Source of the DNA: Sphaerotilus microaerophilus
GTDB lineage: Bacteria; Pseudomonadota; Gammaproteobacteria; Burkholderiales; Burkholderiaceae_C
NCBI RefSeq assembly: GCF_023734135.1
Contig: NZ_AP025730.1
Location: 1,674,001 to 1,738,000, forward strand
DNA: 64,000 bases
Reading direction: 5' to 3'
Positions 1,865-20,456 of this stretch are shown one piece after another. A program made the translations under genes and the position numbers. The notes beneath the pieces are model-generated. The model searched no databases and was not told the origin of the DNA. It was given only the letters and a program-made list of their open reading frames with translations. Every line of letters starts with the position of its first letter. The stretch's first letter is position 1.

Positions 1865-1956
1865 GGAAGCAAAAAGCCCGCCTTCAGCGTGAAGAAGCGG
1901 GCTTCGTGGACTTCAGCGGACCTCGACGGGGGGCATCGATGGTCCCTCGACAGGAA
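1865..1956. repeat. attL: left direct repeat with duplicated tRNA-Arg 3' end
   Basis: This 92-bp segment matches 20365-20456 with scattered mismatches. It holds a terminator hairpin (1871-1904) followed by GCATCGATGGTCCCTCGACA, the duplicated 3' end of tRNA-Arg with one C missing. The terminator in this copy is probably the original chromosomal one. Confidence 0.85.
1871..1904 (-). terminator. Rho-independent terminator (attL copy)
   Basis: On the minus strand the arms AAGCCCGC and GCGGGCTT (1897-1904 with 1874-1881) and an inner CTTC/GAAG stem are followed by a run of five T. It is probably the ancestral terminator of tRNA-Arg before the island inserted. It now also ends minus-strand transcription leaving the island. 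Confidence 0.8.
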
Positions 1957-2805: not shown

Positions 2806-2875
2806 ACCGGGCCTTGTAAGGTTCGCCGAACGTCGGTTTGCAGTGCGTTGTGCTTTCGGCTCCCTGTAAATGCAC

Positions 2876-3185: not shown

Positions 3186-3494
3186 CTAGGCGGCCACCTG
3201 CGCCACCAGCTTGACCCCCAGCGCCTTGCACACCCGTTGAATCGTGTCGAAGCGCGGATGTGCCGTCGGCCGCAGCGCCTTGTAAAGGGCTTCGCGGGTC
3301 AGGCCCGCATCGGCCGCGACAGCCGTCATGCCACGGGCGCGGGCAATCGTTCCGAGCGCATCGGCCAGGGCCGCCGGGTCGTCCTCTTCAAGCACGATGG
3401 TGAGGTATTCGGCGATCGCCTGATCGCTGTCCAGGTGCTCCGCCATGTCGAACTCTGGCAGGTCAGAAGCCTTGATCGTCTTGGTGTCGCTCAT
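3186..3494 (-). CDS. HigA-like antitoxin (addiction module antidote, HTH)
   Basis: The protein has 102 aa. The N-terminal stretch (DLPEFDMAEHLDSDQAIAEYL) matches the toxin-binding leader typical of this antidote family. The C-terminal half is a Cro/XRE-type helix-turn-helix (GMTAVAADAGLTREALYKAL to FDTIQRVCKALGVKL). It follows the toxin gene with a 3-bp gap, so the order is toxin first, as in higBA modules. It should bind and neutralise the toxin and repress the shared promoter, where an inverted repeat is present at 3809-3835. Confidence 0.88.
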   Translation of the reverse strand: MSDTKTIKASDLPEFDMAEHLDSDQAIAEYLTIVLEEDDPAALADALGTIARARGMTAVAADAGLTREALYKALRPTAHPRFDTIQRVCKALGVKLVAQVAA

Positions 3495-3497
3495 GGG

Positions 3498-3794
3498 TCA
3501 ATCCTCAATGTGCCGCGCCAGGGCCTGCGCCGCTGCAATGTCGGCTTGCTGGGTGCTCTTGTCGCCCCCGCCCAGCATCAAGACCAACACGGCGCCGCGC
3601 TGAACGTAGTACATGCGCCACCCGGGGCCAAAGGACTCGCGCATCTCGCACACCCCCTCGCCGACAGCCTTCACGTCGCCCAGGTTGCCGCGTTGCACCT
3701 TTTCCAGTCGGCGCGCCAGGCGGCGCCGGGTCATGCCGTCCTTCAGGCCGGTCAGCCACTGCATGAACTCGGGGGTTTGCCGGACCGTGTACAT
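3498..3794 (-). CDS. HigB/RelE-like toxin (addiction module killer protein)
   Basis: The protein has 98 aa and the RelE-superfamily layout: EFMQWLTGLKDGMTRRRLARRL, GNLGDVKAVGEGVCEMRESF, then GWRMYYVQRGAVLVLMLGGGDKSTQQADI. The last block is the hallmark of the ParE/RelE-like 'killer protein' family that pairs with the adjacent HTH antidote. Such toxins usually cleave translated mRNA. The ATG at 3794 is chosen because homology begins there (MYTVRQTPEF); the longer upstream frame is not family-like. It is the first gene of a two-gene operon behind a palindromic operator. Confidence 0.9.
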   Translation of the reverse strand: MYTVRQTPEFMQWLTGLKDGMTRRRLARRLEKVQRGNLGDVKAVGEGVCEMRESFGPGWRMYYVQRGAVLVLMLGGGDKSTQQADIAAAQALARHIED

Positions 3795-3907: not shown

Positions 3908-4267
3908 TCAGCCCTCCCGGTCTGCCGCAGGCCCCCACCCCGCGAACACCTTCGCCAAGTCGGCACCGGCCGACTCCTTGCGGCAGCGCCAATCGGTCGC
4001 CACCAGCCAACGATTCATCGGCCGGCCGGTGCCCGTCTTGCTCGAATTGGCGGCCCGCGTGCCATCAAAGACCAGCTCGCCCGCCCTCCGCATTTCGGAC
4101 ACGGTGCAGCTCACCATGTGCCGATCGGCGGGTGACTTCGGGTGCAGGCCCGGGATCTCGGCCATCACGTCCAGGTAGGTCACAGGCCCGTGAACATGGT
4201 TCAGGCGCTCGAAGGCTTCGAGCAGCTGCACCCGCAGCGGGCTTCGAGGCCGGCCCCTCAGTCCCAT
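3908..4267 (-). CDS. Hypothetical protein downstream of the primase-helicase
   Basis: The protein has 119 aa. It starts at an ATG (4267) that overlaps the stop of the DUF927 gene by 10 nt, which points to translational coupling. The sequence (LRVQLLEAFERLNHVHGPVTYLDVMAEI, then MVSCTVSEMRRAGEL) looks like a winged-helix fold with two helices and a possible DNA-contact region. A conserved-looking Gly/Arg/Pro tail (SSKTGTGRPMNRW) follows. No family is recognised. Its position behind the replication gene suggests an accessory replication or copy-control factor, but that is a guess from context. Confidence 0.7.
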   Translation of the reverse strand: MGLRGRPRSPLRVQLLEAFERLNHVHGPVTYLDVMAEIPGLHPKSPADRHMVSCTVSEMRRAGELVFDGTRAANSSKTGTGRPMNRWLVATDWRCRKESAGADLAKVFAGWGPAADREG

Positions 4268-6048
4268 GACGCCACCACGTCGAACACCGCCGGCAGGATG
4301 TGGAACACCGGGGCGTTCCCGATGCCGGGGAGCCGCAGCTTGTGGGTGAGGCGGTCGCGGTCCGTCTTCAGGCAGTCCGCATCCTTCAGCACCTTCGCCA
4401 CGAACTGCGCATCCAGCCCCTTGCACACCTCGTTTCGGAAGGCTTCGGGGAACACCAGGTATTCGACCAGGTGGGCATCGGCGCTGCGCTCGCCGGCCGG
4501 GGCGCGGCTGTCGCAGTACTCATCGGCGCTGTCGTACTTCACCGGCTGGCCGGCCTCATCGATCATGCGTTTGTAGCCGGCGCGCAGCGCGGTGTTCGGC
4601 TTGTGATCGTCCATCGCCCGGTGCCACCAGGTGAACAGCGCGTCGCCGTTCTTCTCCAGATAGGCGCGCACCTGGCGCAGGGCTTCGGCCCTCTCACTGC
4701 TGCCAAAGCCTGCCGGGCGGGCGCCCACCCAGGCGAGGAAGCAGCGCTTCACGCCCTCGGTCGCTGCGCCTTCGGGCCAGCCGGTCAGCCCCTGCCGCGT
4801 GGCCAGCTCGCCCGCTGCAGCGACCAGGGCGAAGCGCCGGCCGACGCGCTTGATCTGCCCGTCCGCCACGTCCGGCACGAAGCGCAGGGCCAGCGCCTCC
4901 ACATCGGCGCGAAGGTCCTTCGGCCAGGTGTCGGAGTGGGCAACCAGCCATTCCAGCCAGGCCCGCCCGATCGCCCCGTGGGTGGACTCGCACACCCGCG
5001 CCAGGTGCTGCGCCAGCGCGGCGCCGCCTTCATGATCGTGCACGGTGTCGAACAACCCGAGCCCCACACCCGCATCGGCCGGCATGTCCACCATGCGCAG
5101 CTCTTGCCCGGCACGGATGCGCGTTCCACCTTCGGCCATGTGCTGGGAAAGGGGGATCTCCCCGGCCGACAACCACAGCAGCCGCCAGGACAACCGCGGG
5201 CGTGCCCCGCCGTTGCGGCCCGCCCGGGCCTTGCCCTGGCCGTTGGCCAACATGTAGGCCGATGGGCCGGCAACCTTCGGATCCAACTGACCGAGTTCGT
5301 CCAGCACCAGCACACCGTCTGAGTGCTGCACGGCCTGGGTTTCCAAACCATTGTCAGTTGCCCTCCATCGCTGCAAATAGTCCTTGCCGCCCCACACCGA
5401 CGCGGCCACCCGTAGCGCGGTGGTCTTGCCGCAGCTCGAATCCCCCCGCAGGTGGAAGCCGCCCGATTCCATGCCCGGCACCCAGCCCAGCACCGGCCCG
5501 GCCAACGCCACCGAGGCCGCGAACAACAGCCGGCTGTTGCCCACGCAGTGCCGGCCGATGCGCTCTTGCCACTGCGCCAGGCTGCCCCGTTGGGTGTAGG
5601 CGTCTTCCATGGGCGCTTCGCTGTGGAACATCAGGCGTTCGGCCGGGGCGTTGCCGTCGGCATTTCCGTCGCCACCGTCGGCGGTCAGCGTCTCCCGCGG
5701 CAGCACGTAGGCGCGGCCCTGCCAGCCCACGCGGTCGACCAGGCGCACGCGGTCGGCCGGGCGCCGGCTCTGCAGGTACTCGGTGAGCCAGCGGCGCCGG
5801 TTGCCGTCGGTTGGGGCGATGAAGCCCATGTCCAGCAGTTCGGCCCGGTAGGCGGCGCCGTCACCGGCCAGCATGGACAGCGGCATCAGCCAGCGGCGCC
5901 CCCGGCCGAACTGTGAATCGAAGTCCAGCAGCAGCGCCCCGCCCTTGTCGTGCATGTCGCGCGCCAGGGCCAGCACCTCCAGGCGGTCACACACCCGGCG
6001 CGCGCTGCCCGTGGTGCCATCGTCGCCGGCCGGCGGGGTGAACCACAC
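4258..6048 (-). CDS. DUF927 helicase module of the island primase-helicase
   Basis: The protein is 596 aa when read from the only in-frame start (GTG at 6048). The DUF927 N-terminal region (ARRVCDRLEVLALARDM, WLMPLSMLAGDGAAYRAEL) leads to a P-loop NTPase with Walker A GDSSCGKTT (202-210) and Walker B VLVLDELGQ (246-254). Family similarity begins upstream of that GTG: the frame continues back through FDRFRVDDSGVWFTPP and GKRSKGRKSNRARSPDDG to about 6189 with no other start codon. The upstream Toprim gene reads directly into this frame if one C is added to the CCCC run at 6188-6191. The native gene is therefore probably a single fusion of about 1095 aa. The likely role is a hexameric replicative helicase at the element's origin. 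Confidence 0.85.
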   Translation of the reverse strand: MWFTPPAGDDGTTGSARRVCDRLEVLALARDMHDKGGALLLDFDSQFGRGRRWLMPLSMLAGDGAAYRAELLDMGFIAPTDGNRRRWLTEYLQSRRPADRVRLVDRVGWQGRAYVLPRETLTADGGDGNADGNAPAERLMFHSEAPMEDAYTQRGSLAQWQERIGRHCVGNSRLLFAASVALAGPVLGWVPGMESGGFHLRGDSSCGKTTALRVAASVWGGKDYLQRWRATDNGLETQAVQHSDGVLVLDELGQLDPKVAGPSAYMLANGQGKARAGRNGGARPRLSWRLLWLSAGEIPLSQHMAEGGTRIRAGQELRMVDMPADAGVGLGLFDTVHDHEGGAALAQHLARVCESTHGAIGRAWLEWLVAHSDTWPKDLRADVEALALRFVPDVADGQIKRVGRRFALVAAAGELATRQGLTGWPEGAATEGVKRCFLAWVGARPAGFGSSERAEALRQVRAYLEKNGDALFTWWHRAMDDHKPNTALRAGYKRMIDEAGQPVKYDSADEYCDSRAPAGERSADAHLVEYLVFPEAFRNEVCKGLDAQFVAKVLKDADCLKTDRDRLTHKLRLPGIGNAPVFHILPAVFDVVASWD

Positions 6049-7544
6049 GCCCGAATCGTCGACGCGGAAACGGTCGAACCCGCCCGGCAGGTCGGCCCCG
6101 CCGTCGCGCTCGCCGGGGTCGCCGGGGTCGCCATCGTCAGGCGAGCGGGCGCGGTTCGATTTGCGGCCCTTGGAGCGCTTGCCCGCAGGGGCTGGTGCGT
6201 CAGGGTCAGCCGGGGCGGATCGTCGCCCAGCGGGCCGGCGCTCGCGTCGGTGGGGGCGTTGCTGTCGGCCGGCCCGGTGTCGTTGGCGTGGTCGTTGGCG
6301 TGGTCGGTCCGCTCGGTGCCGTTGTCATGGCCGGCCAGCTCGCCGGCCTCGTCACCGGCCACCAGGTCGGCACCCGCTGCGCTCGGTGCCCCGGCCAGCA
6401 GGGCCAGTGCCGCGGCCTGCACCTGGGCGCGCACCGCGTCGGCGCCGGCATGGGCGTGCAGGTCGTTGAAGTCCGTCCCGCCCTCGGGTAGGCCGTCAGG
6501 CAGCACCAGGCCGGCACGCCCGCCCGCGGCCTGCACCGCCCGAGCCGCGGCGGCGCCCTTCACCCGGCCGGGGTTGGTGCCGGTGCGGGCCTCGGTGGCG
6601 CGGTCATCGTCGCCACACACCAGCAGCAGGGCACCCGGGTGCAGGCCCTGCAGCGCCAGGGCGCAGGGCTTGAGGTTGCCGGCGTCGAAGCACACCGCCA
6701 CCGGCCAGCCGGTGGCCTCGTGCAGGCTGGCCCCGGTGGCGTAGCCCTCGGCCAGCAGCAGCACGGACGGGGGTGCGGTGCAGGCGTCTGCACCCTGGGT
6801 GCTGGCGTCCGCGGGGGCTGCTGGCGCACCGGCCGGGCCGCCCAGCTCGCCGATCAGGTGCCACAGCCCGGACTTGCGCCCGCCGGGCAGGTAGCGCTTT
6901 TCTGGCGGCTGTTCCGGCTGCTGTCCCGGCTGGTCTCCCACGGGCTTCACCGGGGCGATGCGCTGCACGTTCTGCAGCTCGCCGGCCGCGTTGCGCATGG
7001 GCACCAGCAAAGTCCCATCGGGCAGAAAGCGCACCCCGTGCGGCTGCACGCCCTTGCGGTTCAGGTAGGGGCTCGATCCCGCCTCGCTGGCGTCGGCCCA
7101 CAGCTCCCGCGCCCAGCGGGCGGCATCGTCGGCGCGACGCCGGTACTCCGCTTCTTCGGCCAGGCGCTTGCGCTCGCGTTCGGCCGCAGCAGCGGCCAGG
7201 GCCGCCGGGTCGGGCGCGGGCGCGTCGCCGTCCACATCCGGGAAGCGGAAGCCGTGGTCCTTGGCGATGCCGAACAGCGTTCCCACCTTGACCCGCCCGG
7301 GCTTGCGTGCGCTCTTCCACGTGTCGCGGTCTTCCACCGCGTCCGCGTTGCTGCGCTGCGCCGCCCAGCTCAGCCAGGCATCGGCGCCGGCATCGCCCAC
7401 GCCGTCCCACACCGCAAAGGCCAGCCGCACCCGGTCATCGTGGGTCACGTCCGGCGGGATGAAGCTCAGGGCGTCGCGCACCAGGTCGAGGGTGATCGGG
7501 CGCGACGGGGCTGCGGCGCGGGGCCGGCGGGGGCGAGTTGACAT
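5886..7544 (-). CDS. PriCT-2/Toprim primase module of the island (frameshifted fusion)
   Basis: An N-terminal PriCT-2-like region (about 18-100; LVRDALSFIPPDVTHDDRVRLAFAV) is followed by an Ala/Glu/Arg-rich linker, a primase-associated segment (SPYLNRKGVQPHGVRFLP) and a Toprim_3 domain. The Toprim domain shows the glutamate in LLLAEGYATG and the acidic CGDDDRA and TDFNDLHAH motifs. Credible protein sequence ends near residue 450 (position about 6190). Beyond that the frame is an Arg/Ala-rich antisense-like tail overlapping the DUF927 gene. A one-base loss in CCCC at 6188-6191 explains the break. The protein should synthesise primers for replication of the excised element. Confidence 0.82.
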   Translation of the reverse strand: MSTRPRRPRAAAPSRPITLDLVRDALSFIPPDVTHDDRVRLAFAVWDGVGDAGADAWLSWAAQRSNADAVEDRDTWKSARKPGRVKVGTLFGIAKDHGFRFPDVDGDAPAPDPAALAAAAAERERKRLAEEAEYRRRADDAARWARELWADASEAGSSPYLNRKGVQPHGVRFLPDGTLLVPMRNAAGELQNVQRIAPVKPVGDQPGQQPEQPPEKRYLPGGRKSGLWHLIGELGGPAGAPAAPADASTQGADACTAPPSVLLLAEGYATGASLHEATGWPVAVCFDAGNLKPCALALQGLHPGALLLVCGDDDRATEARTGTNPGRVKGAAAARAVQAAGGRAGLVLPDGLPEGGTDFNDLHAHAGADAVRAQVQAAALALLAGAPSAAGADLVAGDEAGELAGHDNGTERTDHANDHANDTGPADSNAPTDASAGPLGDDPPRLTLTHQPLRASAPRAANRTAPARLTMATPATPASATAGPTCRAGSTVSASTIRACGSPRRPATMAPRAARAGCVTAWRCWPWRATCTTRAGRCCWTSIHSSAGGAAG

Positions 7545-8562: not shown

Positions 8563-8828
8563 GGTTCGTTCCTTTCGTAGGTGGTGGCGCACTCGCTGGC
8601 GCTCAGCAGCTGCGCGGCCAGGCTGCGGGCCTGCGCTGGGTCGAGATGGGCCGTGAAGGTCATCCCGTCGTGTGTGGTGGTCAGGCTCACCCGCCCCTTC
8701 ACCTGCGTGGCTTTGACCTGCAGGGCCGCCCCCAGGTCGGCCGGGCGCGAGGCGGTGGCGGTGTCGCAGGTGCTGGCGCGGGTGGTGGGCGCTGCGTCAT
8801 TGGCGCGCTGGCGGCGGCCCGGCTTCAC
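8559..8828 (-). CDS. Hypothetical protein (89 aa)
   Basis: A basic N-terminus ([19 protein letters not shown]) is followed by a small beta-rich domain ([40 protein letters not shown]). The final helix with '[14 protein letters not shown]' resembles the end of the Ash-linked protein encoded at 9819-10112 (TPMQARHLAQALSAAAD), so the two may be paralogues. It overlaps both neighbours by 4 nt. Function is unknown. Confidence 0.62.
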
Positions 8829-9493
8829 AGCAGCCCCCTTTCAGCGAAGGACACGGACCCGGCGGCGCCGACCACAAAGTGATCGAACACCCGCACATCC
8901 ACCACGGCCAGGGCCGTTTTCAGGCTTTGCGTCAGGAACTCATCCGACCGGGACGGTTCGGGCGTGCCGGACGGGTGGTTGTGGAACAGCACCACGGCCG
9001 CGGCATGCAGTTCAAGCGCTTCCCGCACCACTTCACGCGGGTAGACCGAGGTCTGTGACAGGGAGCCGCGGAACAAGACCCGGCAATCAATCAGCTGGTG
9101 CTGGGCGTCCAGAAACAGGGCACCGAACACCTCGAATGGCAGGCTCCCGAACTGCAAGCGCAGGTAGTCGCGGGCATCCCGGGTGCTGATCATTGCGGGG
9201 CCGCGGTGGACTTGACCTTCCAGCCAGGCCAGCGCCTCAGCCACACACGGCGGGCGTTCGCTTTCCGGGCCGGTCAAGACGATGCACGCACCCGCCGCGG
9301 CCGACTTGGCAGCGCTCGTCAACGGCAGGTAGGTGCTCGGTTGACGCAGCCGCGTCACCTTGGCGGGGTACCGACCACGGCGTGACGGTTGAACCACTGG
9401 CGCTGCGGCAGCGCCAGGCAGCGGGAACACGGGTGCCGACCATGCAGCAGCTTCACCAGCACCCGCGGTGCCGGTCTTCTTGATGGTGGCCAC
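8825..9493 (-). CDS. RadC-like JAB-domain protein
   Basis: The protein is 222 aa from GTG 9493, chosen because it overlaps the upstream stop closely and is where MATIKKT-type homologues begin. The C-terminal JAB/MPN metalloprotease-like domain has [31 protein letters not shown] and the zinc motif HNHPSG (171-176) followed by Ser183-Asp184. The N-terminal 90 residues are a Pro/Ala-rich extension. RadC-like JAB proteins are frequent cargo of integrative elements. Despite the name, no DNA-repair role is established; deubiquitinase-like or anti-defence roles have been proposed for the fold. Confidence 0.88.
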
Positions 9494-9495
9494 GG

Positions 9496-9822
9496 TCAGG
9501 CCTCCTGCGGTTCGGTAGGTGTTGCGGCCTGCGGCGTGCAGTCGGCGTGCGGCACCCAGGCGCCACCAGGGCCAGCCCACAGGCCGTGCTGAAGCAGCGT
9601 CTTCCAGTGGTGATCGCCGGGCTGGTGGGCATGCAGCTCGGGCGCGGCAGCGGCCAGCCAGCGGCGGACGATCTCGGAGCCCACGGCCCCCGCCAGCTGG
9701 CCGGCTTCGCGGTCGCCGTGCGGTGCCGGGTTCGCCTGGCCGATGTGCCAGAGCGCGGCCAGGTGGCTATCGGTGACGCTGGACAGGCCGGCGGGGTCGA
9801 TGTCGAAGGTGACGCGGATCAT
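9496..9822 (-). CDS. Hypothetical protein (108 aa)
   Basis: The N-terminus [20 protein letters not shown] leads into [20 protein letters not shown] and [14 protein letters not shown]. Tryptophans and histidines are abundant near the C-terminus ([12 protein letters not shown]). It overlaps the upstream stop by 4 nt and sits 2 nt before the RadC-like gene. This type recurs in proteobacterial islands, but no function is known to me. Confidence 0.62.
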
Positions 9823-10112: not shown

Positions 10113-10273
10113 GTCGGAGGCTCCTTTGCTACGGTCTACAACCGCCACCCCCCACGCCAATAGGGGGCGGCGGCCCGAAGCAGGGTTGGCGTACCGGAGC
10201 AAAGGAACCGGCGTGCCCGAAGGCACCCCCGCCCGGGCCGCCATTGAACGGGAGCCTGAGCGCTGCGCGCAAA

Positions 10274-10366: not shown

Positions 10367-10372
10367 GCACAC

Positions 10373-10403
10373 AGTGTAGCCCCGTGCGCGCGGGTGCTGT
10401 CAA
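10373..10403 (-). promoter_or_regulatory. Probable promoter of the satellite replication operon leader
   Basis: TTGACA (10398-10403) and TACACT (10373-10378) on the minus strand have a 19-bp spacer, slightly long. Located inside the end of the Ash frame, it would drive the leader RNA and, past the terminator, the genes from 10112 to 3908. Confidence 0.5.
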
Positions 10404-10417
10404 GCCCTTCGGTCGCG

Positions 10418-10858
10418 TCATTGCAGCCGCCCCGCGCCCAGCACATGGAGGAATGCCGCCTCAACCGACCCGGCCGGCACGCCCAAGCGGGCGGCAGCGC
10501 GCGCCAGATCAGCCGCAGCGGGCAACCGACCACGCCGCGGGAGCGCGGTCAATAGGGCGGCGCCAGTCACGCCCACCAAGTCGGCCACCCGCTGCAGCAG
10601 GCTGCGCAAGGCGGCATCAGTGGCCCACCGCTGCGCCCGGCGGCGGAAGCTGGCAGACAGGCCCATGCGGCGCCCGCAGGGCTTGCAGGCGGCCATACCG
10701 AAGCCAACAGCCGAACGCACCGCCAGCGGCGCGGCCTCGTTGCTGTCCCGGCCACAGACACAGCAACGGAAGGAACCCGGCCGGCCCCATTCGGCCAGGG
10801 CCGCGGCTTGCTGGTCCTCGCTCAGGTGTGCCGGCGGGTCGTCGGTGCGGCGGTTCAC
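10418..10858 (-). CDS. Hypothetical zinc-ribbon-like protein (146 aa)
   Basis: A CxxC pair in FRCCVCGRDS and a second in AACKPCGRRMG suggest one zinc-binding knuckle within residues 30-65. The C-terminal half is helical (LRSLLQRVADLVGVTGAALL, LARAAARLGVPAGSVEAAFL). It follows alpA with a 4-nt overlap and its stop overlaps the possible ATG at 10421. Such small zinc proteins between alpA and the primase are common in P4-like elements. A nucleic-acid-binding role is only a guess. Confidence 0.65.
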   Translation of the reverse strand: MNRRTDDPPAHLSEDQQAAALAEWGRPGSFRCCVCGRDSNEAAPLAVRSAVGFGMAACKPCGRRMGLSASFRRRAQRWATDAALRSLLQRVADLVGVTGAALLTALPRRGRLPAAADLARAAARLGVPAGSVEAAFLHVLGAGRLQ

Positions 10859-11199
10859 GCCCGCGTCCCTTGACCGGCCAGCAAGTCGGCGCCGGCATCG
10901 GATCGGGCAATCACCTTGGCGATGTAGGCGTCGATCCGGGATTCCGGCCAGGCCACGCAGCGCGCAGAGATGAGCACCGGCCGCAACAGGGGCTCTTCCT
11001 TCGCCAGGGCGTAGATCTTCGATTTTCGGAACCCGACGCGCGCCTCCACCTGATCGATGCGCAGCAAGGTTTCAGAGCGCTTGACCCGGGCCAGTTGGTC
11101 GGGCGGCAGGTCAACCCGGGCAGGGGCGAGTGATTCAGCGGCGCCCAGCCCGTGCGTGATCGGGCGGATTTGAGCGGTGGGCGGGTGTGTCGTTTCCAT
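10855..11199 (-). CDS. AlpA-family transcriptional regulator
   Basis: The protein has 114 aa. The MerR-like AlpA core is LLRIDQVEARVGFRKSKIYA followed by an island-typical RPVLISARCVAWPESRIDAYI. Family members activate excision or integrase expression, or control late genes, in P4-type elements (AlpA in CP4-57, Vis in P4). The N-terminal 40 residues are less conserved and the start (ATG 11199) has only a weak ribosome site, so a shorter product is possible. It is the first gene of the leftward operon. Confidence 0.85.
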   Translation of the reverse strand: METTHPPTAQIRPITHGLGAAESLAPARVDLPPDQLARVKRSETLLRIDQVEARVGFRKSKIYALAKEEPLLRPVLISARCVAWPESRIDAYIAKVIARSDAGADLLAGQGTRA

Positions 11200-11309
11200 C
11201 GTGGCATCCGTGGCGGTGTTTGGACAGCAACGCGATCATCACGAGGTCGGAACGAGTTTTGAAGGGTTCCTGTTCTTGAGGTCGGAGAATCAGAAACGGT
11301 TGTTTGCGG

Positions 11310-12041
11310 TCAGCAGTGCGTGGGATCCATTTCGGATACCACCTTGCAAACCAAGGCGGCGCCGCACGCCAGGCGAACGTCTGTCTTCAGCCTTAACGAC
11401 TCACATTCGGCTAGTTTTTCCATGAACACGGGGAACCATGATTCCTTGCTTCTCGGCGGCAGGGCTCCCGTGATGGCGTAATGTGCATGCGCTACAAACC
11501 AAATGAGCCGCTTTGCCCTGGTCACGCTCACTTTGTTTCCCTGGCTCACGAAACCGTCAAACCTCCCGGCACACAGGCCTGCGACTTGGTGAAGGTCGTC
11601 AACGGTGTCCCAGGCGACATCCAAACGCGACCGTGCACCGCGCCTGACTACCAGCCGACCACGGGGAGCCGCACGACAACGGTCACTGAGCAAGACAGCG
11701 GGCGCCGTGGCGTGGACCAGCTCCTGATACGTGCATTCGACCGCATCCGCTGCGGACTCTGACAGGGCAGCAAGTGCCTTCAGGAGGTCCTGCGCCTTTT
11801 TCACCACATCTTGAAGTGCGTCCCGAGCAACGCCAGGCGAAGAGTCATCATCGAACAAGAGGACGTTGTTTACAGCGCTGTTGCAGGCAGCCACAAACCG
11901 TTCGACTTGCTCCGGCGGCCATTTGGAGCGAGGCCTGTGCCGAAGAATTCCGATCAACTCCGCGCGTAGTGCAGGCGATATCGAGACTGCGTCCGGGTCA
12001 TGCCAACCGGCAGCCCGTTCACTCTTCCATGGCTTCTTCAT
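11310..12041 (-). CDS. Uncharacterised cargo protein (243 aa)
   Basis: The start is the ATG at 12041 with GAGGGG six nt upstream. Although the frame remains open far upstream, that part lies in the repeat array and is not protein-like. The protein is soluble and mostly helical: ALRAELIGILRHRPRSKWPP, EQVERFVAACNSAVNNVLLF, then a possible coiled coil (VVKKAQDLLKALAALSESAA). The C-terminal section has KRLIWFVAHAHYAITGALPP and SKESWFPVFMEKLAECESLR. That C-terminal pattern recurs in hypothetical proteins of mobile elements. It lies between alpA and the first repeat array, in the cargo position of the satellite. Confidence 0.7.
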   Translation of the reverse strand: MKKPWKSERAAGWHDPDAVSISPALRAELIGILRHRPRSKWPPEQVERFVAACNSAVNNVLLFDDDSSPGVARDALQDVVKKAQDLLKALAALSESAADAVECTYQELVHATAPAVLLSDRCRAAPRGRLVVRRGARSRLDVAWDTVDDLHQVAGLCAGRFDGFVSQGNKVSVTRAKRLIWFVAHAHYAITGALPPRSKESWFPVFMEKLAECESLRLKTDVRLACGAALVCKVVSEMDPTHC

Positions 12042-12182
12042 GCACACCCCTCGGCTGTGCCCCCTGCAATGAATGCCGCGCCGGCCGGGCAAGGATTCCC
12101 GGTGTTCGCCCGGCCAAATGCTAGGCGCAGCGGTGGCATTTTCCGTCAACGTGCACACAGGTTCGCCGACGTGCGAAAGGTA

Positions 12183-15100
12183 GGCGGCCAGCCTGGACGA
12201 TCCGGTGGCAGGTGGCTGGCCCGGCCGGTCGGGGCAATCCGGTGACGGGTGGCCGGCCGGTGTCGGCCTGGCAGCAGTGCCCGGCGGCGAGGTCGGTGTC
12301 GACCAGGCCGAAGCGGTCACGCGGGTGGCAGTGCTGGCAGGCCAGCGGGCTGCAACGGCGTGCACCAGGGGCAGCAGCTCGCCGGCAGGCGGCAGGTGGC
12401 CGGCTAGTGTCGGCCTGGCAGCGGTGCCCGGCGGCGCGGGCGGCGTCGACCGGGCCGAAGCGGGCGCGCGGGTGGTGGTGCTGGCCGGCCGGCGGGCTGC
12501 TGCGGTGTGCACCAGGGGCAGCAGCTCGCCGGCAGGTCGGGCGAGCCCGGCCGGTGCGGTGGCGTTGACCAGGTCGGAGCGGTCACGCGGGTGGCGGTGC
12601 TGGCAGGCCAGCGGGCTGCAGCGGTGGGCACCAGGCGCAGCAGCTCGCCGGCAGGGGCGGCAGGCCCGGCCGGCCGGGGCGATCCGTTGACGGGTGGCCG
12701 GTCGGTGTCGGCCTGGCAGCAGTGCCGGCCGGTGCGGTGGCGTCGACCAAGTCGAAGCGGGCGCGCGGGTGGCGATGCTGGCCGGCCAGCGGGCTGCTGC
12801 GGTGTGCACCAGGGGCAGCAGCTCGCCGGCAGGGGCGGCAAGCCCGGGCGGCCTGGGCGATCCGGCGGCAGGTGGCCGGCTGGTGGCGCCGGTGCGATGG
12901 CGTCGACCAGGTCGAAGCGGGCGCGCGGGTGGCGATGCTGGCCGGCCAGCAGGCTGCAGCGGCGTGCACCAGGCGCAGCAGTTCGCCGGCAGGGGCGGCA
13001 AGCCCGGGCGGTCGGGGCGATCCGATGGCGGGTGGCCGGCTGGTGGCGCCGGTGCGATGGCGTCGACCAGGTCGAAGCGGGCGCGCGGGTGGCGATGCTG
13101 GCCGGCCGGCAGGCTGCAGCGGTGGGCACCAGATGCAGCAGCTCGCCGACAGGGGCGGCAGGCCCGGCCGGCCGGGTAATCCGGTGGCAGGTGGCCGGCT
13201 GGTGTCGGCCTGGCAGCGATGCCGGGCGGCGCGGGTGACGTCGACCAGGTCGGAGCGGTCACCCGGGTGGCGATGCTGGCCGGCCTGCGGGCTGCAGCGG
13301 CGGGCACCAGGTGCAGCAGCTCGCCGGCTGGGGCAGCAGGCCCGGCCGGTCGGGGCGATCCGGCGGCAGGCGGTCGGCTGGTGTCGGCTTGGCGGTAGTG
13401 CCCGGCGGTGCGGGCGGCGTCGACCAGGCCGAAGCGGGCGCGCGGGTGGCGATGCTGGCCGGCCGGCAGGCTGCAGCGGCGTGCACCAGGGGCAGCAGCT
13501 CGCCGGCAAGCGGCAGGCACGCCCGCCCGGGGCGATCCGTTGACGGGTGGCCGGCCGGTGCCGGCTTGGCAGCGGTGCCCGGCGGCGCGGTCGGCGTCGA
13601 CCAGACCGAAGCGGGCGCGCGGGTGGCGATGCTGGCCGGCCAGTGGGCTGCAGCGGCGGGCACCAGGTGCAGCAGCTCGCCGGCTGGGTCAGCAGGCCCG
13701 GCCGGTCGGGGCGATCCGGTGACAGGTGGCCGGTCGGTGTCGGCCTGGCAGCAGTGCCCGGCGACGAGGTCGGTGTCGACCAGGCCGAAGCGGTCACGCG
13801 GGTGGCAGTGCTGGCAGGCCAGCGGGCTGCAATGGCGTTCACCAGGGGCAGCAGCTCGCCGGCAGGCGGCAGGTGGCCGGCTAGTGTCGGCCTGGCAGCG
13901 GCGCCCGGCGGTGCGGGTGGCCGGCTGGTGTCGGCCTGGCAGCGGCGCCCGGCGGTGCGGGTAGCTTCGACCAGGCCGAAGCGGGCGCACGGGTGGCGAT
14001 GCTGGCCGGCCTGCGGGCTGCAGCGGTGGGCACCAGGTGCAGCAGCTCGCCGGCTGGGTCAGCAGGCCCGGCCGGTCGGGGCGATCCGGTGACAGGTGGC
14101 CGGTCGGTGTCGGCCTGGCAGCAGTGCCCGGCGACGAGGTCGGTGTCGACCAGGCCGAAGCGGTCACGCGGGTGGCAGTGCTGGCAGGCCAGCGGGCTGC
14201 AACGGCGTGCACCAGGGGCAGCAGCTCGCCGGCAGGCGGCAGGTGGCCGGCTAGTGTCGGCCTGGCAGCGGTGCCCGGCGGCGCGGGCGGCGTCGACCGG
14301 GCCGAAGCGGGCGCACGGGTGGCGATGCTGGCCGGCCTGCGGGCTGCAGCGGCGGGCACCAGGTGCAGCAGCTCGCCGGCTGGGGCAGCAGGCCCGGCCG
14401 GTCGGGGCGATCCGGCGACGGGTGGCCGGCTGGTGTCGGCCTGGCAGCGGCGCCCGGCGGTGCGGGTAGCTTCGACCAGGCCGAAGCGGTCACGCGGTTG
14501 CGATGCTGGCCAGCCAGTGGGCTGCAGCGGCGTGCACCAGGTGCAGCAGCTCGCCGACAGGGGCGGCAGGCCCGGCCGGTCGGGGCGATCCGGTGACAGG
14601 TGGCCGGTCGGTGTCGGCCTGGCAGCAGTGCCCGGCGACGAGGTCGGTGTCGACCAGGCCGAAGCGGTCACGCGGGTGGCAGTGCTGGCAGGCCAGCGGG
14701 CTGCAACGGCGTGCACCAGGGGCAGCAGCTCGCCGGCAGGCGGCAGGTGGCCGGCTAGTGTCGGCCTGGCAGCGGTGCCCGGCGGTGCGGGTAGCTTCGA
14801 CCAGGCCGAAGCGGGCGCACGGGTGGCGATGCTGGCCGGCCTGCGGGCTGCAACGGCGTGCACCAGGGGCAGCAGCTCGCCGGCAAGGGCGGCAGGCCCG
14901 GCCGGTCGGGGCGATCCGGTGACGGGTGGCCGGCCGGTGTCGGTCCGGCAGCAGTGCCCGGCGGTGCGGCGGCGTCGACCAGGTCGAAGCGGTCACGCGG
15001 GTGGCAGTGCTGGCAGGCCAGCGGGCTGCAACGGCGTGCACCAGGGGCAGCAGCTCGCCGGCAGGCGGCAGGTGGCCGGCTAGTGTCGGCCTGGCAGCGG

Positions 15101-15935
15101 TGCCCGGCGGTGCGGGTAGCTTCGACCAGGCCGAAGCGGGCGCACGGGTGGCGATGCTGGCCGGCCTGCGGGCTGCAACGGCGTGCACCAGGGGCAGCAG
15201 CTCGCCGGCAAGGGCGGCAGGCCCGGCCGGTCGGGGCGATCCGGTGACGGGTGGCCGGCCGGTGTCGGTCCGGCAGCAGTGCCCGGCGGTGCGGCGGCGT
15301 CGACCAGGTCGAAGCGGTCACGCGGTTGCGATGCTGGCCAGCCAGTGGGCTGCAGCGGCGTGCACCAGGTGCAGCAGTTCGCCGGCAGGGGCGGCAGGCC
15401 CGGCCGGTCGGGGTGATCCGGCGGCAGGTGGCCGGCTGGTGTCGGCCGGCGGTTGTGCCCGGCGGTGCGGGTGGCGTCGACCAGGTCGGAGCGGTCACGC
15501 GGGTGGCGGTGCTGGCAGGCCAGCGGGCTGCAACGGTGGGCACCAGGTGCAGCAGCTCGCCGGCTGGGGCAGCAGGCCCGGCCGGTCGGGGCGATCCGGC
15601 GGCAGGCGGTCGGCTGGTGTCGGCTTGGCGGTAGTGCCCGGCGGTGCGGGCGGCGTCGACCAGGCCGAAGCGGGCGCGCGGGTGGCGATGCTGGCCGGCC
15701 GGCAGGCTGCAGCGGCGTGCACCAGGGGCAGCAGCTCGCCGGCAGGGGCGGCAGGCCCGGCCGGTCGGGGCGATCCGGTGACGGGTGGCCGGCCGGTGTC
15801 GGTCCGGCAGCAGTGCCCGGCGGTGCGGCGGCGTCGACCAGGTCGAAGCGGTCACGCGGTTGCGATGCTGGCCAGCCAGTGGGCTGCAGCGGCGTGCACC
15901 AGGTGCAGCAGCTCGCCCGCCAGCGCTGCCCGGCG
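12183..15935. repeat. Mosaic GC-rich repeat array 1 (about 23 modules of 178/147 bp)
   Basis: A module marked by ACCAGGxGCAGCAGCTCGCC recurs throughout. Markers at 12371, 12518, 12637, 12815, 12975, 13135, 13313, 13492, 13669, 13848, 14039, 14218, 14365, 14543, 14722, 14869, 15047, 15194, 15371, 15549, 15728 and 15905 give spacings mostly of 177-179 or 147 bp. The shorter form lacks a 31-bp block containing GGCCGGTCGGGGCGATCCGG. A few spacings are 119, 160 or 191. Internal segments come in a limited set of alternative versions combined differently in each module. The array starts about 140 bp upstream of the 243-aa gene and ends exactly at the stop of the 111-aa gene. No continuous reading frame covers it, because 178 is not divisible by three. 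Confidence 0.85.
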
Positions 15936-15937
15936 GT

Positions 15938-16273
15938 TCAGGGAAACTTGTCGACTCTGTCGTGTTCGTCAACGTTGCGCAGGTAAGCGATGCCGTCTTC
16001 CAGCGTGAAGCTGGCTTTGTAGGAGTCATTGGACGTCACGTGGATAGTCCACGGGTTCACATGGACCCCTGGCCTCGTTGACGACGGGACGCTGTGGTTC
16101 TTCAGCTGGTGCAGGTGCAGTTTGCTGGGGGATTGGTCAAGATCCAGGAAGAGCAGGCTTCTGATGGATGCCTGGATCTCGCGCTGCAACTGGGCGTCTT
16201 TCACGCCTTTGAGGGCGCGCACGAACGCGGCGGATGTCGCGACGATGCCGCGTACTACTCGCTCGCCGGCCAT
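15938..16273 (-). CDS. Putative RelE-superfamily toxin-like protein (111 aa)
   Basis: An N-terminal helical region (IVATSAAFVRALKGVKDAQL, QREIQASIRSLLFLDLD) is followed by LHLHQLKN and a beta-rich C-terminus (PWTIHVTSNDSYKASFTLED, GIAYLRNVDEHDRVDKFP). The helix-helix-beta layout and 'LHxHxLKN...WTIHVT..ASF' pattern resemble RelE/ParE-type toxins. No catalytic residue set can be confirmed, so this is tentative. It starts 2 bp after the stop of the 183-aa gene, giving a two-gene operon. Its stop codon coincides with the edge of repeat array 1. GC is lower than in the flanking arrays. Confidence 0.6.
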   Translation of the reverse strand: MAGERVVRGIVATSAAFVRALKGVKDAQLQREIQASIRSLLFLDLDQSPSKLHLHQLKNHSVPSSTRPGVHVNPWTIHVTSNDSYKASFTLEDGIAYLRNVDEHDRVDKFP

Positions 16274-16275
16274 GC

Positions 16276-16827
16276 TCAGGCCAGCAGCCTGACCAGTTGG
16301 GCGTCCAGCTCGGCTGGGGTGGATGCGGCCATGGCGCTGCCGGCTCTTGCCGCATCGATGGCGCAGACGTTGGCGTCGTGAGCGCGGATGGCGCTCGCGA
16401 AGTCGCGAGCCTCAGACTTCAGGGCCTGCGATGCCTGAGCGACTTGGCGCAATGCGTCGCGCACCGCGCCGCGGGAGCGTCCATCGGCTTTGGTGAGTTG
16501 CTCGGCCGCATTGGTTGCTTCGCGTGCCAAGTTGGCCAGCATCGCTTCGAGCCGATCCAGCTCGGTGCGCAAAGCGTCTTGCGGGTCAATCTGGATGGGC
16601 TGAGGGTTGTCCTGCAACTCGGCCACCGCACCCTTGAACCAGATGGCAGAACGCTGCATGCGCGTGGCGCGCTCGGAGAGCCCATTGGCCAGCCAAGAGG
16701 TGAGTGGCGCCACAGAAACCCTGGCCGCAACAAGCAGCCATGATGTCTTGACGGTACGGTGGTCCACAGCGGTGGCTTGGTCACGCGCCATGCCTGCCAG
16801 GTCCATCATCGATACCGCCATTCCCAT
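16276..16827 (-). CDS. Uncharacterised helical protein (183 aa), first gene of cargo operon
   Basis: The ATG at 16827 with AAGAGGG upstream is chosen over an ATG 45 nt earlier. The sequence is almost entirely helical (LLVAARVSVAPLTSWLANGL, DALRTELDRLEAMLANLARE, SRGAVRDALRQVAQASQALK) with coiled-coil potential in residues 80-150. No transmembrane segment is clear and no family is recognised. As the gene directly upstream of a possible RelE-like toxin it may be a non-standard antitoxin or regulator, but nothing in the sequence proves this. Confidence 0.6.
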   Translation of the reverse strand: MGMAVSMMDLAGMARDQATAVDHRTVKTSWLLVAARVSVAPLTSWLANGLSERATRMQRSAIWFKGAVAELQDNPQPIQIDPQDALRTELDRLEAMLANLAREATNAAEQLTKADGRSRGAVRDALRQVAQASQALKSEARDFASAIRAHDANVCAIDAARAGSAMAASTPAELDAQLVRLLA

Positions 16828-17036
16828 GTTCGCCCTCTTGCGCGTGCTGCGCCGCACCATCAACGGCTGCAATGTAGCTTGAATCTTCGTCCCTGCAGGT
16901 GACGTGAATATGGGGGAAGGTACCTAGATCAATGGATGGGCAGGAACCCGCACCAGTGCTGCCGCCTACTGGCGACGGTTGGTCAGGAATACCGAAGCGA
17001 GCGCAACGACGATGCCGAGCACAGCGACTGCGACAC

Positions 17037-17930
17037 GCACTGGGGGCACCAGCTCGCCGGCAGGCGGCAAGCCCGGTCGGGGCGATCCGGCAGCAGGTGG
17101 CCGGCTGGTGTCGGCCTGGCAGCGGTGCCCGGCGGTGCGGGTGGCGTCGACCAGGTCGAAACGGGCGCGCGGGTAAGCGGTGCTGGCAGGCCAGCGGGCC
17201 GCAACGGCGTGCACCAGGGGCAGAAGCTCGCCGGCAAGCGCTGCAGGCCCGGCCGGCCGGGGCGATCCGGTGGCAGGTGGTCGGCCGGTGCGGGTGGCGT
17301 CGCCCAGGCCGAAGCAGTCACGCGGGTGGCAGTGCTGGCCAGGCGGCAGGCTGCAGCGGCGTGCACCAGTGGCAGCAGCTCGCCGGCAGGGGCGGCAAGC
17401 CCGGCCGGCCGGGGCGATCCGGTGGCGGGTGCCGGCCGGTGTCGGACTGCCAGCGGGGCGGGGCGGTGGCGTGGACCAGGCCGAAGCAGTCACGCGGGTG
17501 GCGGTGCTGGCAGGCCAGCGGGCTGCAACGGCGTGCACCAGGGGCAGCAGCTCGCCGGCAGGCGGCAGGCCCGGCCGGTCGGGGTGATCCGGCGGCAGGT
17601 GGCCGGCTGGTGTCGGCCGGCGGTTGTGCCCGGCGGTGCGGGTGGCGTCGACCAGGTCGGAGCGGTCACGCGGGTGGCGGTGCTGGCAGGCCAGCGGGCT
17701 GCAACGGTGGGCACCAGGTGCAGCAGCTCGCCGGCTGGGGCAGCAGGCCCGGCCGGTCGGGGCGATCCGGCGACGGGTGGCCGGCTGGTGTCGGCCTGGC
17801 AGCGGCGCCCGGCGGTGCGGGTAGCTTCGACCAGGCCGAAGCGGGCGCACGGGTGGCGATGCTGGCCGGCCTGCGGGCTGCAGCGGTGGGCACCAGGGGC
17901 AGCAGCTCGCCGGCAGGCCGGGCGATTGCG
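17037..17930. repeat. Mosaic GC-rich repeat array 2 (about 6 modules)
   Basis: The same module family as array 1 resumes 210 bp upstream of the 183-aa gene, with marker segments near 17045, 17220, 17375, 17546, 17724 and 17900. Several modules are near copies of modules in array 1; for example 17571-17715 closely resembles 15404-15543. The two arrays flank the 1.1-kb two-gene cassette at 15936-17036. Confidence 0.82.
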
Positions 17931-18482
17931 GGCGCATCTTGGACTTGCCTTTCCTCGCCCGCACACATTGCAGACGCCTGCACTCCGCCGGAAGGGCGGC
18001 CAGGCGGGGCACATCTTCGCAGCCAGTTTCCGGGGTTTTCCGCTGATGCATCAGCACCAGGGAAGCAAGGCCACGTCACATCGGGCGGAGTCACGCGGCA
18101 CCGGCACGGCAGGGGGCAAGGGCTTGGACCCCCTCCCCCCCAAAAACCTGCGCGCGCAGAAATCTGGGGAACCGGCCGGTCCTCCCCATGGGCAGCCCAG
18201 AGATTCAGACCCCCCTCCCCGGGTGTCCCGTGTCCCTCAAGTTCCCGCCCTGAGGAAGGCATGGGACACGAGGCGCGAATGTCCCCGTATTGCCAGACCC
18301 CAGGGAGGACCCACGGGCCACGGCCCGATGCTGGCAGCCCGGCTGCCGCATCGCCCACCAGGCAGGGCAGTGCAGGGGCGGCGGTGGTCGGCCGGCTCTT
18401 GCTGGCGGCGCCGACAGACTGGCAAGGGCCGGCAGGGGGGTCAGATGTGACTGAGGTTGAACACTTCATCTTCTCCTTCTCT
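17931..18482. other. Non-coding stretch between repeat array 2 and right iterons
   Basis: No convincing gene is seen. An inverted repeat GTGTCCC (18231-18237)/GGGACAC (18264-18270) with an inner CCTCA/TGAGG could form a structured RNA or a protein site. A C-rich tract occurs near 18129-18140. Confidence 0.4.
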
Positions 18483-18599
18483 TGCCCCCGTTGCCCCCGT
18501 TTTGCCCCCGTCCCTGCCCCCGTCCCCCTGATCGGCCGCAAAGCCGCGCCGTTGCTGGGTTCGTGGCCGATTCGAGGCCACTTGCCCCCGTGCCCCCGT
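18483..18599. repeat. Right iteron cluster, six TGCCCCCGT copies
   Basis: TGCCCCCGT occurs at 18483-18491, 18492-18500, 18503-18511, 18515-18523, 18583-18591 and 18591-18599, all in one orientation. It is the counterpart of the cluster at 2876-2977. In the circular form the two would lie about 3 kb apart across the att junction. From 18600 to the integrase stop at 18962 I see no gene. Confidence 0.65.
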
Positions 18600-18961
18600 C
18601 GGGTCGTGCACGCCGGCCAAATCTGCGCGCCACTTCCGGCGCTGCAGCAGACCACCAGGTGAGCGCCACCCGTGCGGCCCGTCTTCCCTTCTGGTGCCCC
18701 TGACAGCCCACCGCCGGCCACAGGCGCGCGAAGACAGAACCCCCGCGCCCCCTCCCTGGGCCGGGCCGTAGATCCGCCCATGGCGGCCCGCTGCTGCCTG
18801 CGTCGCGTGCCGAAGCCCTGCCTGCATGCAGGGCACACAAGCCAGATGGACAACGCCCGGCACAGGGCCGGGCGGGTGTGGGTGCTGGGTGGCTGTGGGG
18901 CGCCTGGCTGACGTTGCAGCAGGGCACCAGGAAGCGGGCGGCAGGGTCGCGCGTGGCCAGC

Positions 18962-20254
18962 TCAGGCAGTGCGCAGGGGCAGCACCTGGGCGCCGCCGCT
19001 GCGCATGGCGTCGACGCGATTGCCCCACCAGTCCAGCAGAGCCCGGCGTTCGGGCAGGTACTCCGCCCGGTTGTAGGCGCCGCGCACGCCGTCGCGCTCT
19101 TCATGGGCCAGTTGGCGTTCGATCACGTCGGCGCGGTGTCCGGCCTCGTTGGCGCTGGTGCTGAACAGCGTCCGCATGCCGTGGGCAGTGGCCTCGCCCT
19201 TGTAGCCCATGCGGGCCAGGGCGCTGTTCAGGGTGTTGGCGCTGATCGGCTTGGACGGATAGAAGGGGCTCGGGAAGACCAGCGGACCCGAGCCGGTCAA
19301 GGGCCGCAGTTCGGCCAGCACGGCCAGCGCCTGGCGCGACAGCGGCACCAGGTGTTCGGTCTTCATCTTCATTCGCTCGCCAGGGATGCGCCACAGGCCG
19401 GCCGCTTCGTCGAACTCCACCCAGCGGGCGCCGCGCAGCTCGCCGGGGCGGACGGCGGTCAGCACCAGGAAGAGCAGGGCGCATCGCATCAGCGGGTCGC
19501 GCCCGTAGCCGGCCAGCTGGCGCAGGAAGGCGGGCGCATCCTGGGCAGACAGCGCCGGCCGGTGCTGGGTGGCTCGGGGCCGCAGGATCTCGGCGGGCTT
19601 CAGGGGATAGGTGGGATCGGTGGTCAGGTGCTCGTGAGCCACCGCGTACCGGAACAGGGAGCGCAGGCGCTGGAAAACCCGGCTGGCCATCTCGGCAGCG
19701 CCTGCGGCTTCGATGCGCTGCACGCACTCGCGCACCTGGCCGGGCGTCACCTCGCCAATGGGTACCCGGCCGATGTGGGGGAAGACGTGGCGTTCAAAGG
19801 AGGCTTCGATCTTCTCCCGGGTGCCCTTGGTCCAGGCCCCTGCGCGGTGGTCCAGCCAGTCGCCGGCCAGGGCCTGCAGGCTGCCAGCCGGCGGCAGCTG
19901 GGCAGCCTCGCGGCGTTGCGCCTCGCGTTCGTCGGCACGCTCGCGGGCAGCCTCGGTCCGTGCGTCCTTGCGGACCTCGCTGGGGTCGGTGCCTGCCGCC
20001 ACCAGGGCGCGGGCGTCGGTGGCCTTCTGCCGGGCCAGCGCCAGGCCGGTAGCAGGGTAGGTGCCCAGGCTCAGGGTCTTGCGCCGGCCGTGGATGCTGA
20101 AGTCGAACCGCCAGGCATGTGACCCGCCCTTGACCAGTGGCAGCAGGTAGAGCCCGGCCCCGTCGCTGATCCGCCCGGCCGGTTTCTGGCCGGTGGTGAT
20201 CGCCTTGAGCATGGCGCGCAAGGCCGTGTCGCTGTTGATGAGATTGAAGGCCAC
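18962..20254 (-). CDS. P4-type tyrosine integrase
   Basis: The protein has 430 aa. The N-terminal DUF4102-type arm-binding domain has SDGAGLYLLPLVKGGSHAWR and GRRKTLSLGTYPATGLALAR. After a charged linker (90-120) come the core-binding SAM-like domain and the catalytic domain with Arg269 (TAVRPGELRG), His358-x-x-Arg361 (HGMR), His384 and the nucleophile Tyr394 (GAYNRAEY). All catalytic residues are present. It is the last gene before attR and the tRNA, transcribed away from the tRNA into the island. Four GTTACTGCA sites directly upstream may tie its expression to arm-site occupancy. It should catalyse insertion into and excision from tRNA-Arg. Confidence 0.95.
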   Translation of the reverse strand: MAFNLINSDTALRAMLKAITTGQKPAGRISDGAGLYLLPLVKGGSHAWRFDFSIHGRRKTLSLGTYPATGLALARQKATDARALVAAGTDPSEVRKDARTEAARERADEREAQRREAAQLPPAGSLQALAGDWLDHRAGAWTKGTREKIEASFERHVFPHIGRVPIGEVTPGQVRECVQRIEAAGAAEMASRVFQRLRSLFRYAVAHEHLTTDPTYPLKPAEILRPRATQHRPALSAQDAPAFLRQLAGYGRDPLMRCALLFLVLTAVRPGELRGARWVEFDEAAGLWRIPGERMKMKTEHLVPLSRQALAVLAELRPLTGSGPLVFPSPFYPSKPISANTLNSALARMGYKGEATAHGMRTLFSTSANEAGHRADVIERQLAHEERDGVRGAYNRAEYLPERRALLDWWGNRVDAMRSGGAQVLPLRTA

Positions 20255-20364: not shown

Positions 20365-20456
20365 GGAAGCAAAAAGCCCGCCTTCAGAGTGAAGAAGCGG
20401 GCTTCGTGGACTTCGGCGGACCCCGGCGGAAGCATCGATGGTCCCCTCGACAGGAA
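20365..20456. repeat. attR: right direct repeat overlapping tRNA-Arg 3' end
   Basis: This is the partner of 1865-1956. It includes the tRNA 3' end (20439-20456) and an island-borne terminator copy. Differences from the left copy cluster between the terminator and the tRNA segment, as expected if the identical core is only the tRNA part. Confidence 0.85.
20371..20404 (-). terminator. Rho-independent terminator downstream of tRNA-Arg (attR copy)
   Basis: The same stem and five-T tail as at 1871-1904 lie 35 bp after the CCA end of the tRNA. The island appears to have brought this copy and so restored a terminator for the tRNA it interrupted. Confidence 0.8.

What the first reader, a model, noticed from the sequence alone, without database searches (positions are those of the whole stretch)
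12183..17930. Two large mosaic repeat arrays in the cargo zone of a P4-like satellite
About 29 GC-rich modules fill 4.6 kb in two blocks. Spacings fall into two main classes, 177-179 and 147 bp, that differ by one 31-bp block. Inside each module short segments occur in a few alternative versions combined in different ways (for example the GCGAGG/ACGAGG/GTGCGG variants, or GGCCTGGCAG/GGTCCGGCAG/GGCTTGGCGG). This is not a CRISPR, an integron array (no attC core, no intI) or a simple satellite. The mosaic points to frequent recombination or to selection for diversity. One array ends exactly at a stop codon and the other begins just upstream of the operon. I know of no described system of this form.
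Basis: seen in the sequence. Interest (0 to 1): 0.82.

Follow-up and report, generated by a model that had tools for sequence, protein, structure and literature searches.

The report
Repeat arrays bracketing satellite cargo genes
Long GC-rich repeat arrays lie beside or around toxin-antitoxin-like cargo in a family of satellite-like islands integrated at tRNA and tmRNA genes, in matching positions in several bacterial species but with different letters, which suggests that they are homology tracts through which these islands swap or shed cargo by recombination.

Summary
Modules are true mosaics: four-gamete conflict rises with distance (0 of 2000 permutations) and linkage decays; the blocks share a 212-bp exact stretch across the cargo. 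Module length does not keep a reading frame, the attC core is absent, and no RNA covariation shows.

They are not unique. Seven of 13 genus genomes (window included) and one genome of another genus carry such arrays in integrase-bearing islands at five kinds of RNA-gene site, 0.6-1.04 kb past the integrase, in five of them ending 14-130 bp before the int-alpA RNA, sometimes also at the far end. Between arrays lie a RelE-fold pair (window), HicAB, BrnTA plus resolvase, or a Bro protein. Sequence is clearly shared only within groups, and array kinship disagrees with integrase kinship.

Best reading (0.5): homology platforms around cargo slots, used for exchange and loss. Main rival (0.33): tolerated tandem repeats. 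No population data or experiment decides. The window's gene pair occurs elsewhere without arrays.

The parts
12183..15921 (-). Array block 1, 3739 bp, 22 module starts, GC 78%; strand given is that of the island's genes
17040..17925 (-). Array block 2, 886 bp, GC 79%; its cargo-side end is 19 nt into a module
16276..16827 (-). Cargo ORF A, 183 aa by its homologue cluster (open frame from 16872, 198 aa); no family match above cut-off
15938..16273 (-). [not shown]
17926..18961 (-). About 1 kb spacer between integrase end and array; partly alignable with the spacers of four other islands
18962..20254 (-). Tyrosine integrase, 430 aa
20439..20513 (-). tRNA-Arg(CCT), integration site
20400..20445 (.). 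Integrase-side attachment repeat (imperfect direct repeat with about 1900-1946)
1900..1946 (.). Far attachment repeat; the island is about 18.5 kb
12062..12131 (-). int-alpA RNA (RF02996, 49.5 bits), 51 bp from block 1
11310..12041 (-). ORF C, 243 aa, no family match; no BLASTP similarity to the gene at this place in G012
10855..11199 (-). AlpA-family regulator
10163..10248 (-). C4 antisense RNA (RF01695)
8825..9580 (-). RadC-like JAB protein
5886..7544 (-). PriCT-2/Toprim part of the primase-helicase
4258..6048 (-). DUF927 part of the primase-helicase (one gene in relatives)
3186..3758 (-). Gp49-like (just under cut-off) / HTH antidote addiction pair at the far cargo slot, no array here
2054..2659 (-). 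Serine resolvase-family protein near the far end

Best explanation
The arrays are homology platforms beside two cargo slots of a satellite-like island, one between the integrase and the int-alpA/alpA regulatory region and one between the primase-helicase and the far attachment site. Shown: position, mosaic structure, long exact stretches shared by arrays on either side of cargo, recurrence with different cargo, and lack of a sequence shared by all arrays. Inferred: general homologous recombination between arrays, within an island, between islands resident in one cell, or with incoming island DNA, inserts, replaces or deletes the small cargo operon between them. The same process keeps the modules of one island alike, makes them mosaic, and lets the sequence drift apart between lineages. 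No dedicated recombinase or recognition site is needed; what would be conserved is having long same-orientation repeats on the two sides of the slot.
For: Cargo between two array stretches in four islands: RelE-fold pair (window), HicAB (L198 11270-11859; arrays 10341-11243 and 11872-15000), BrnTA plus resolvase between a 144-bp array fragment and a 445-bp array (L266), C4 RNA plus Bro-N gene (L200). Exact stretches shared: 212 bp across the window's cargo, 176 bp across HicAB in G004, and 110 bp between G004's near and far arrays, about 14-16 kb apart. G001's near and far arrays are 84-95% identical over 120-238 bp in their seven longest pairings, across 8.6 kb. Recombination inside modules. 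Array kinship against integrase kinship: G005 array tiles match G004 at 92 of 100 bases (57 of 57 tiles; reverse direction 76, 218 of 243) though the integrases are 61% identical, while G006 tiles match G004 at 53 (64 of 74; reverse 51, 227 of 243) though integrases are 89% and helicases 89% identical. A remnant island in G004 at tRNA-Met carries a 0.2-kb array piece matching the tRNA-Ala island's arrays at 84 of 100 bases (6 of 6 tiles). Window and G012 share integrase (88%) and helicase (84%) while ORF C shows no similarity. Cargo stops lie 16 and 12 bp from the array in the window and G004.
Against: No swap, loss or copy-number change was observed: one genome per species was available. What lies between the near-side array ends in G012, G006 and G005 is in assembly gaps, so swaps cannot be counted. 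G001 and G008 have near arrays with no gene called between array stretches, G009's related island has no array, and the window's far slot has none. The discordance rests on one integrase comparison per pair, and the core of G005's array-bearing island was not found. Array kinship follows one host gene's identity (G004-G005 87%, G004-G006 83%), so within-host homogenisation would explain it without cargo exchange. In G006 and G004 the Bro gene ends 318 and 345 bp from the array, not at its edge.
Confidence: 0.5

Rival explanations
1. The arrays are tolerated tandem repeats: slippage and unequal crossing-over expand GC-rich sequence wherever the island has non-essential DNA, that is around cargo. 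Exchange across cargo is a by-product, not a function.
For: Little or no similarity between array groups; the mosaic fits unequal exchange; no array detected upstream of the RNA in 78 of 82 int-alpA loci examined; arrays without recognised cargo in G001 and G008.
Against: Similar placement in islands at tRNA-Arg, tRNA-Ala, tRNA-Phe and tmRNA sites and in two genera; a quarter of an 18.5-kb mobile element is a heavy load for bacterial DNA to keep (inference).
Confidence: 0.33
2. The arrays act through transcription: C-rich Rho-type termination or structured RNA that insulates cargo from the regulatory RNAs and the replication operon.
For: All 16 pieces measured in five genomes have C over G on the sense strand, as do the three G008 zones; arrays stop just before int-alpA RNA.
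Against: Skew is reversed in the G001 near and far arrays and in G064; one module folded on both strands gives z of -1.3 and -1.2; covariation term -0.06 on 22 modules.
Confidence: 0.07
3. The arrays are stuffer DNA that tunes island length for packaging in helper capsids.
For: The two islands with both attachment repeats on one contig measure about 18.5 and 19.6 kb.
Against: Only two lengths; no capsid or packaging gene among the island proteins scanned; does not predict placement around cargo.
Confidence: 0.05
4. The arrays are integron-like or other site-specific cassette sites.
For: The genome encodes an integron integrase elsewhere; cargo operons are small.
Against: GTTRRRY absent in the six arrays tested, both strands; no 10-mer common to the arrays of five genomes; the 28 own-genome hits of a module all lie in the window (40 of 195 candidates scored).
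Confidence: 0.03

Closest known systems
Cargo hotspots of P4-like satellites and P2-like phages (PMC9122126, passages seen by term search)
   Same: Variable accessory operons at a fixed place in an integrated satellite; how the hotspot is exchanged is left open there (cos ends plus homologous recombination are suggested).
   Different: No repeat arrays appear in the passages seen, and 'tandem' occurs 0 times in the main text; different island family; cargo seen here is mainly TA-like.
Trypanosome VSG cassettes with 70-bp repeats (PMC8612549 and PMC4858185, titles and abstract starts in a search listing)
   Same: Cassettes exchanged by homologous recombination that is helped by blocks of repeats.
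   Different: Eukaryotic surface antigen genes; studied by experiment there, not here.
Integron cassette arrays (recalled)
   Same: Small cargo units exchanged at repeated sites.
   Different: Site-specific IntI/attC; the attC core is absent here.
Islands with int-alpA RNA and C4 antisense RNA (RF02996, RF01695)
   Same: The window's island carries both RNAs.
   Different: In 78 of 82 int-alpA loci examined no array was detected upstream of the RNA.

Membership tests
P4-like phage satellite | tRNA-site tyrosine integrase | tested here: met
P4-like phage satellite | AlpA regulator and C4-type RNA | tested here: met
P4-like phage satellite | primase-helicase replication protein | tested here: met
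   PriCT-2, Toprim and DUF927, in two overlapping frames in the window; not tested against the P4 alpha protein itself
P4-like phage satellite | psu, sid, delta capsid-hijack genes | tested here: inconclusive
   Psu not found in the genome, but the search rang in no control genome; none among the Pfam hits of the island ORFs scanned
Integron cassette array | attC core GTTRRRY in each unit | tested here: not met
   0 in six arrays, both strands
Integron cassette array | intI next to the array | tested here: not met
   integrase here is of phage type; the one match over the intI cut-off lies elsewhere
CRISPR array | short identical repeats with unrelated spacers | tested here: not met
   27 modules of 119-191 bp that align along their length
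Repeat protein gene | module length keeps reading frame | tested here: not met
   27 spacings mod 3: 11, 9 and 7
Type II toxin-antitoxin (ORF A/B) | RelE-superfamily toxin fold in one gene | tested here: met
   [not shown]
Type II toxin-antitoxin (ORF A/B) | toxicity and neutralisation by the partner | not testable with these tools
   needs an expression assay

The most novel reading that the evidence does not exclude
A class of mobile islands has evolved repeat arrays as built-in recombination platforms beside its cargo slots, conserved in position but not in sequence, so that islands sharing a host lineage exchange toxin-antitoxin and other cargo by ordinary homologous recombination: a bacterial counterpart, in working principle, of repeat-flanked antigen cassettes.
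Probability: 0.4. Interest if true: 0.82.

Novelty: new variant of a known kind. Interest (0 to 1): 0.64.

Why it matters
How satellites change their cargo is an open question; the P4 hotspot paper suggests recombination routes and calls for experiments (PMC9122126, passages). Arrays in matching positions with drifting sequence would be a physical structure for it, testable by long-read population sequencing and a simple recombination assay. Several draft contigs here end inside arrays, so the cargo of such islands may be missed in draft assemblies.

Tried and rejected
RNA function: one module folded on each strand (z -1.27 and -1.23); RNAalifold on 22 of 29 pieces gave a covariation term of -0.06. 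Rut-type C richness: fails in G001 and G064. Protein coding: frames not kept; stop counts are below shuffles in several of the eight arrays tested, which I did not explain further. Common protein-binding motif: no 10-mer is common to the arrays of five genomes; eight 8-mers are common to four groups against 0.66 expected, maximum 5 in 200 shuffles; this hint of shared ancestry or composition stays open. CTGGTCGA or E. coli Chi as a recombination signal: not universal. A window-derived 28-bp core scores above all 60 shuffles in G012, G064 and G001, but not in G004, G005, G006 or G008; background 1-kb stretches reached 6.5 and 17.8 bits on the two strands, so only G064 (20.9) stands out clearly. 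Arrays made of host gene pieces: 47 bp of a G004 module resembles a gene that I read as a thioesterase (by recall, no family search) at 87-89% in several genomes; chance in GC-rich codons not excluded. A 327-bp query found nothing in plasmids or phages, an exact pattern nothing in genome contigs. One IMG/VR hit to a 20-base pattern had no array. AlpA searches gave 4 loci in genome contigs, one of them the G012 record, and none in IMG/VR.

Of 148 other genomes, 47 gave hits (E 5e-8 to 1e-3); those of G012 led to its arrays. Of the rest I scanned L022 (G078) with TRF, no array, and fetched a G003 stretch that I did not analyse; the others were treated as chance. Searches scored only a few candidates per genome (2 to 40), so arrays can have been missed.

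The short contigs of ORF B homologues (20 of 39 under 2 kb) could reflect array breaks, but metagenome contigs are often short; not used.

Literature searches showed no description of such arrays; only titles and abstract starts were seen, plus passages of PMC9122126 and PMC8628076.
Full report
OBSERVATION. Two blocks of GC-rich modules fill 12183-15921 and 17040-17925. A degenerate 39-mer of the module occurs 27 times against 0 in 100 shuffles. The split at module starts gives 29 pieces; 27 are at least 110 bp. A 178-bp module searched in the own genome gave 28 hits, all in these blocks, with 40 of 195 candidates scored.

SURROUNDINGS. On the minus strand the order is tRNA-Arg(CCT), integrase, 1-kb spacer, block 2, ORF A, ORF B, block 1, int-alpA RNA, ORF C, AlpA, C4 RNA, RadC-like gene, primase-helicase, a Gp49/HTH addiction pair, and a resolvase-family gene. 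An imperfect direct repeat near 20400-20445 and 1900-1946 gives an island of about 18.5 kb; arrays make up a quarter of it.

RECURRENCE. RF02996 was found in 95 of 399 family genomes. Of its listed loci I fetched 80 (not all that were listed), plus L042 and the window: 82. An array directly upstream was detected in 4: window, G012, G006 (TRF) and G064, of another genus (self-comparison). Three further loci had repeats not of this kind by position or gene context (L087 and L116 downstream of the RNA, L091 in a long ORF). DNA searches in the 13 genus genomes and a helicase search led to G004, G005, G001 and G008. In all, 7 of 13 genus genomes (G000, G001, G004, G005, G006, G008, G012) and G064 carry arrays; G009's helicase-bearing island and its int-alpA locus have none. 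G002, G003, G007, G010 and G011 were not searched for arrays of unknown sequence, except stretches L208 (G002), L206 (G010) and L258 (G011), which showed no array of this kind.

ARCHITECTURE. The gap from integrase end to array is 1036 (window), 894 (G012), 1005 (G004), 966 (G006), 1040 (G005), about 730 (G001), about 610 (G008) and about 890 bp (G064). The gap from array to int-alpA RNA is 51, 29, 14, 98 and about 130 bp in window, G012, G004, G006 and G064; no RF02996 match was seen in the G001 and G008 islands. Sites: tRNA-Arg(CCT) for window, G012, G001; tRNA-Ala(CGC) for G004 and G006; tRNA-Phe for G005; tmRNA for G008 and G064; a remnant at tRNA-Met in G004. Far-end arrays: G012, G004, G006, G001, and a G064 contig. 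The G012, G006 and G005 contigs end in or within about 60 bp of arrays, as repeat-broken assemblies do.

MOSAIC AND EXCHANGE. Among 37 biallelic sites in 27 modules, conflict between neighbouring sites is 0.261 against 0.447 for all pairs; none of 2000 permutations was as low, and mean r2 falls from 0.19 within 20 bp to 0.02-0.06 beyond 100 bp. The longest exact stretch between blocks 1 and 2 is 212 bp; within block 1 it is 341 bp; in G004 176 bp across HicAB and 110 bp to the far array. G012's 140-bp matches lie at contig ends and may be assembly overlap; its inner match of 112 bp does not.

SEQUENCE FAMILIES. Window and G012 arrays are homologous (local score 94.8, shuffle maximum 27.4); G004, G005 and G006 form a second group; between the groups scores lie from below to somewhat above the shuffle maximum. 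G001 and G008 show weak similarity to others, G008-G012 being the highest (51.2 against 23.4). G064 shares a 28-bp core with the window (20.9 bits, 0 of 60 shuffles). Position is thus conserved better than sequence.

DISCORDANCE. Integrase identity: G004-G006 88.6%, G004-G005 61%; helicase G004-G006 89%. Array tiles of 100 bases: G005 to G004 92 matched (57 of 57), G004 to G005 76 (218 of 243); G006 to G004 53 (64 of 74), G004 to G006 51 (227 of 243). One host gene: G004-G005 87%, G004-G006 83%. Arrays therefore follow the host lineage more than the integrase, as expected if islands in one lineage exchange array DNA. P4-like integrases too are reported to have a history of their own (PMC8628076, passages).

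MECHANISM. Taken together the arrays behave as long same-orientation homology around cargo slots. In the window the block-2 end (first 19 nt of a module) and the block-1 start (4 nt before a module start) leave the module phase nearly continuous across the cargo, as expected if cargo was set into one array; this is inference from one locus. Whether exchange is the reason the arrays exist or their by-product cannot be told from single genomes.

COMPARISON AND NOVELTY. Integron, CRISPR and repeat-protein readings fail their tests. Membership in P4-like satellites stays open because capsid genes could not be tested well. Works-like analogies are the P4/P2 cargo hotspots and repeat-flanked VSG cassettes. 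None of the eight literature searches listed under Tried and rejected showed such arrays in satellites, as far as titles and abstract starts tell.

Noticed in passing
G000:C1:5410222-5411169: A true integron integrase (TIGR02249, 467 bits, cut-off 265) far from the window.
   Followed up: no
L042:5266-8337: The G012 island carries a 1023-aa gene matching phage tail fibre / central tail fibre J families (PHROG 5616, 31) between a RadC-like gene (by resemblance) and the helicase, odd cargo for a satellite.
   Followed up: partly
window 4258-7544: The primase-helicase lies in two overlapping frames (552 and 596 aa), while relatives have one gene of 1061-1091 aa.
   Followed up: no
L198:15102-15896 and L156:428-1225: The gene after int-alpA RNA aligns over only 83 residues (84%) between G004 and G006, and not at all between window and G012, although integrase and helicase are 84-89% identical within each pair.
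   Followed up: partly
L200:8325-9437: A Bro-N protein whose C-terminal part resembles the C-terminus of the island helicase (59%, residues 922-1059); a C4 RNA precedes it.
   Followed up: no
L149 array (original 1708-3194, minus strand): The G064 array contains 15-bp palindromes in two versions besides the shared core (sequence).
   Followed up: no
L198:12426-12472: A 47-bp module segment is 87-89% like a gene conserved in several genera, read by me as a thioesterase; capture or chance.
   Followed up: partly
L076 (G000:C1:4828709): A second int-alpA locus in the same genome, near tRNA-Thr, without an array.
   Followed up: no
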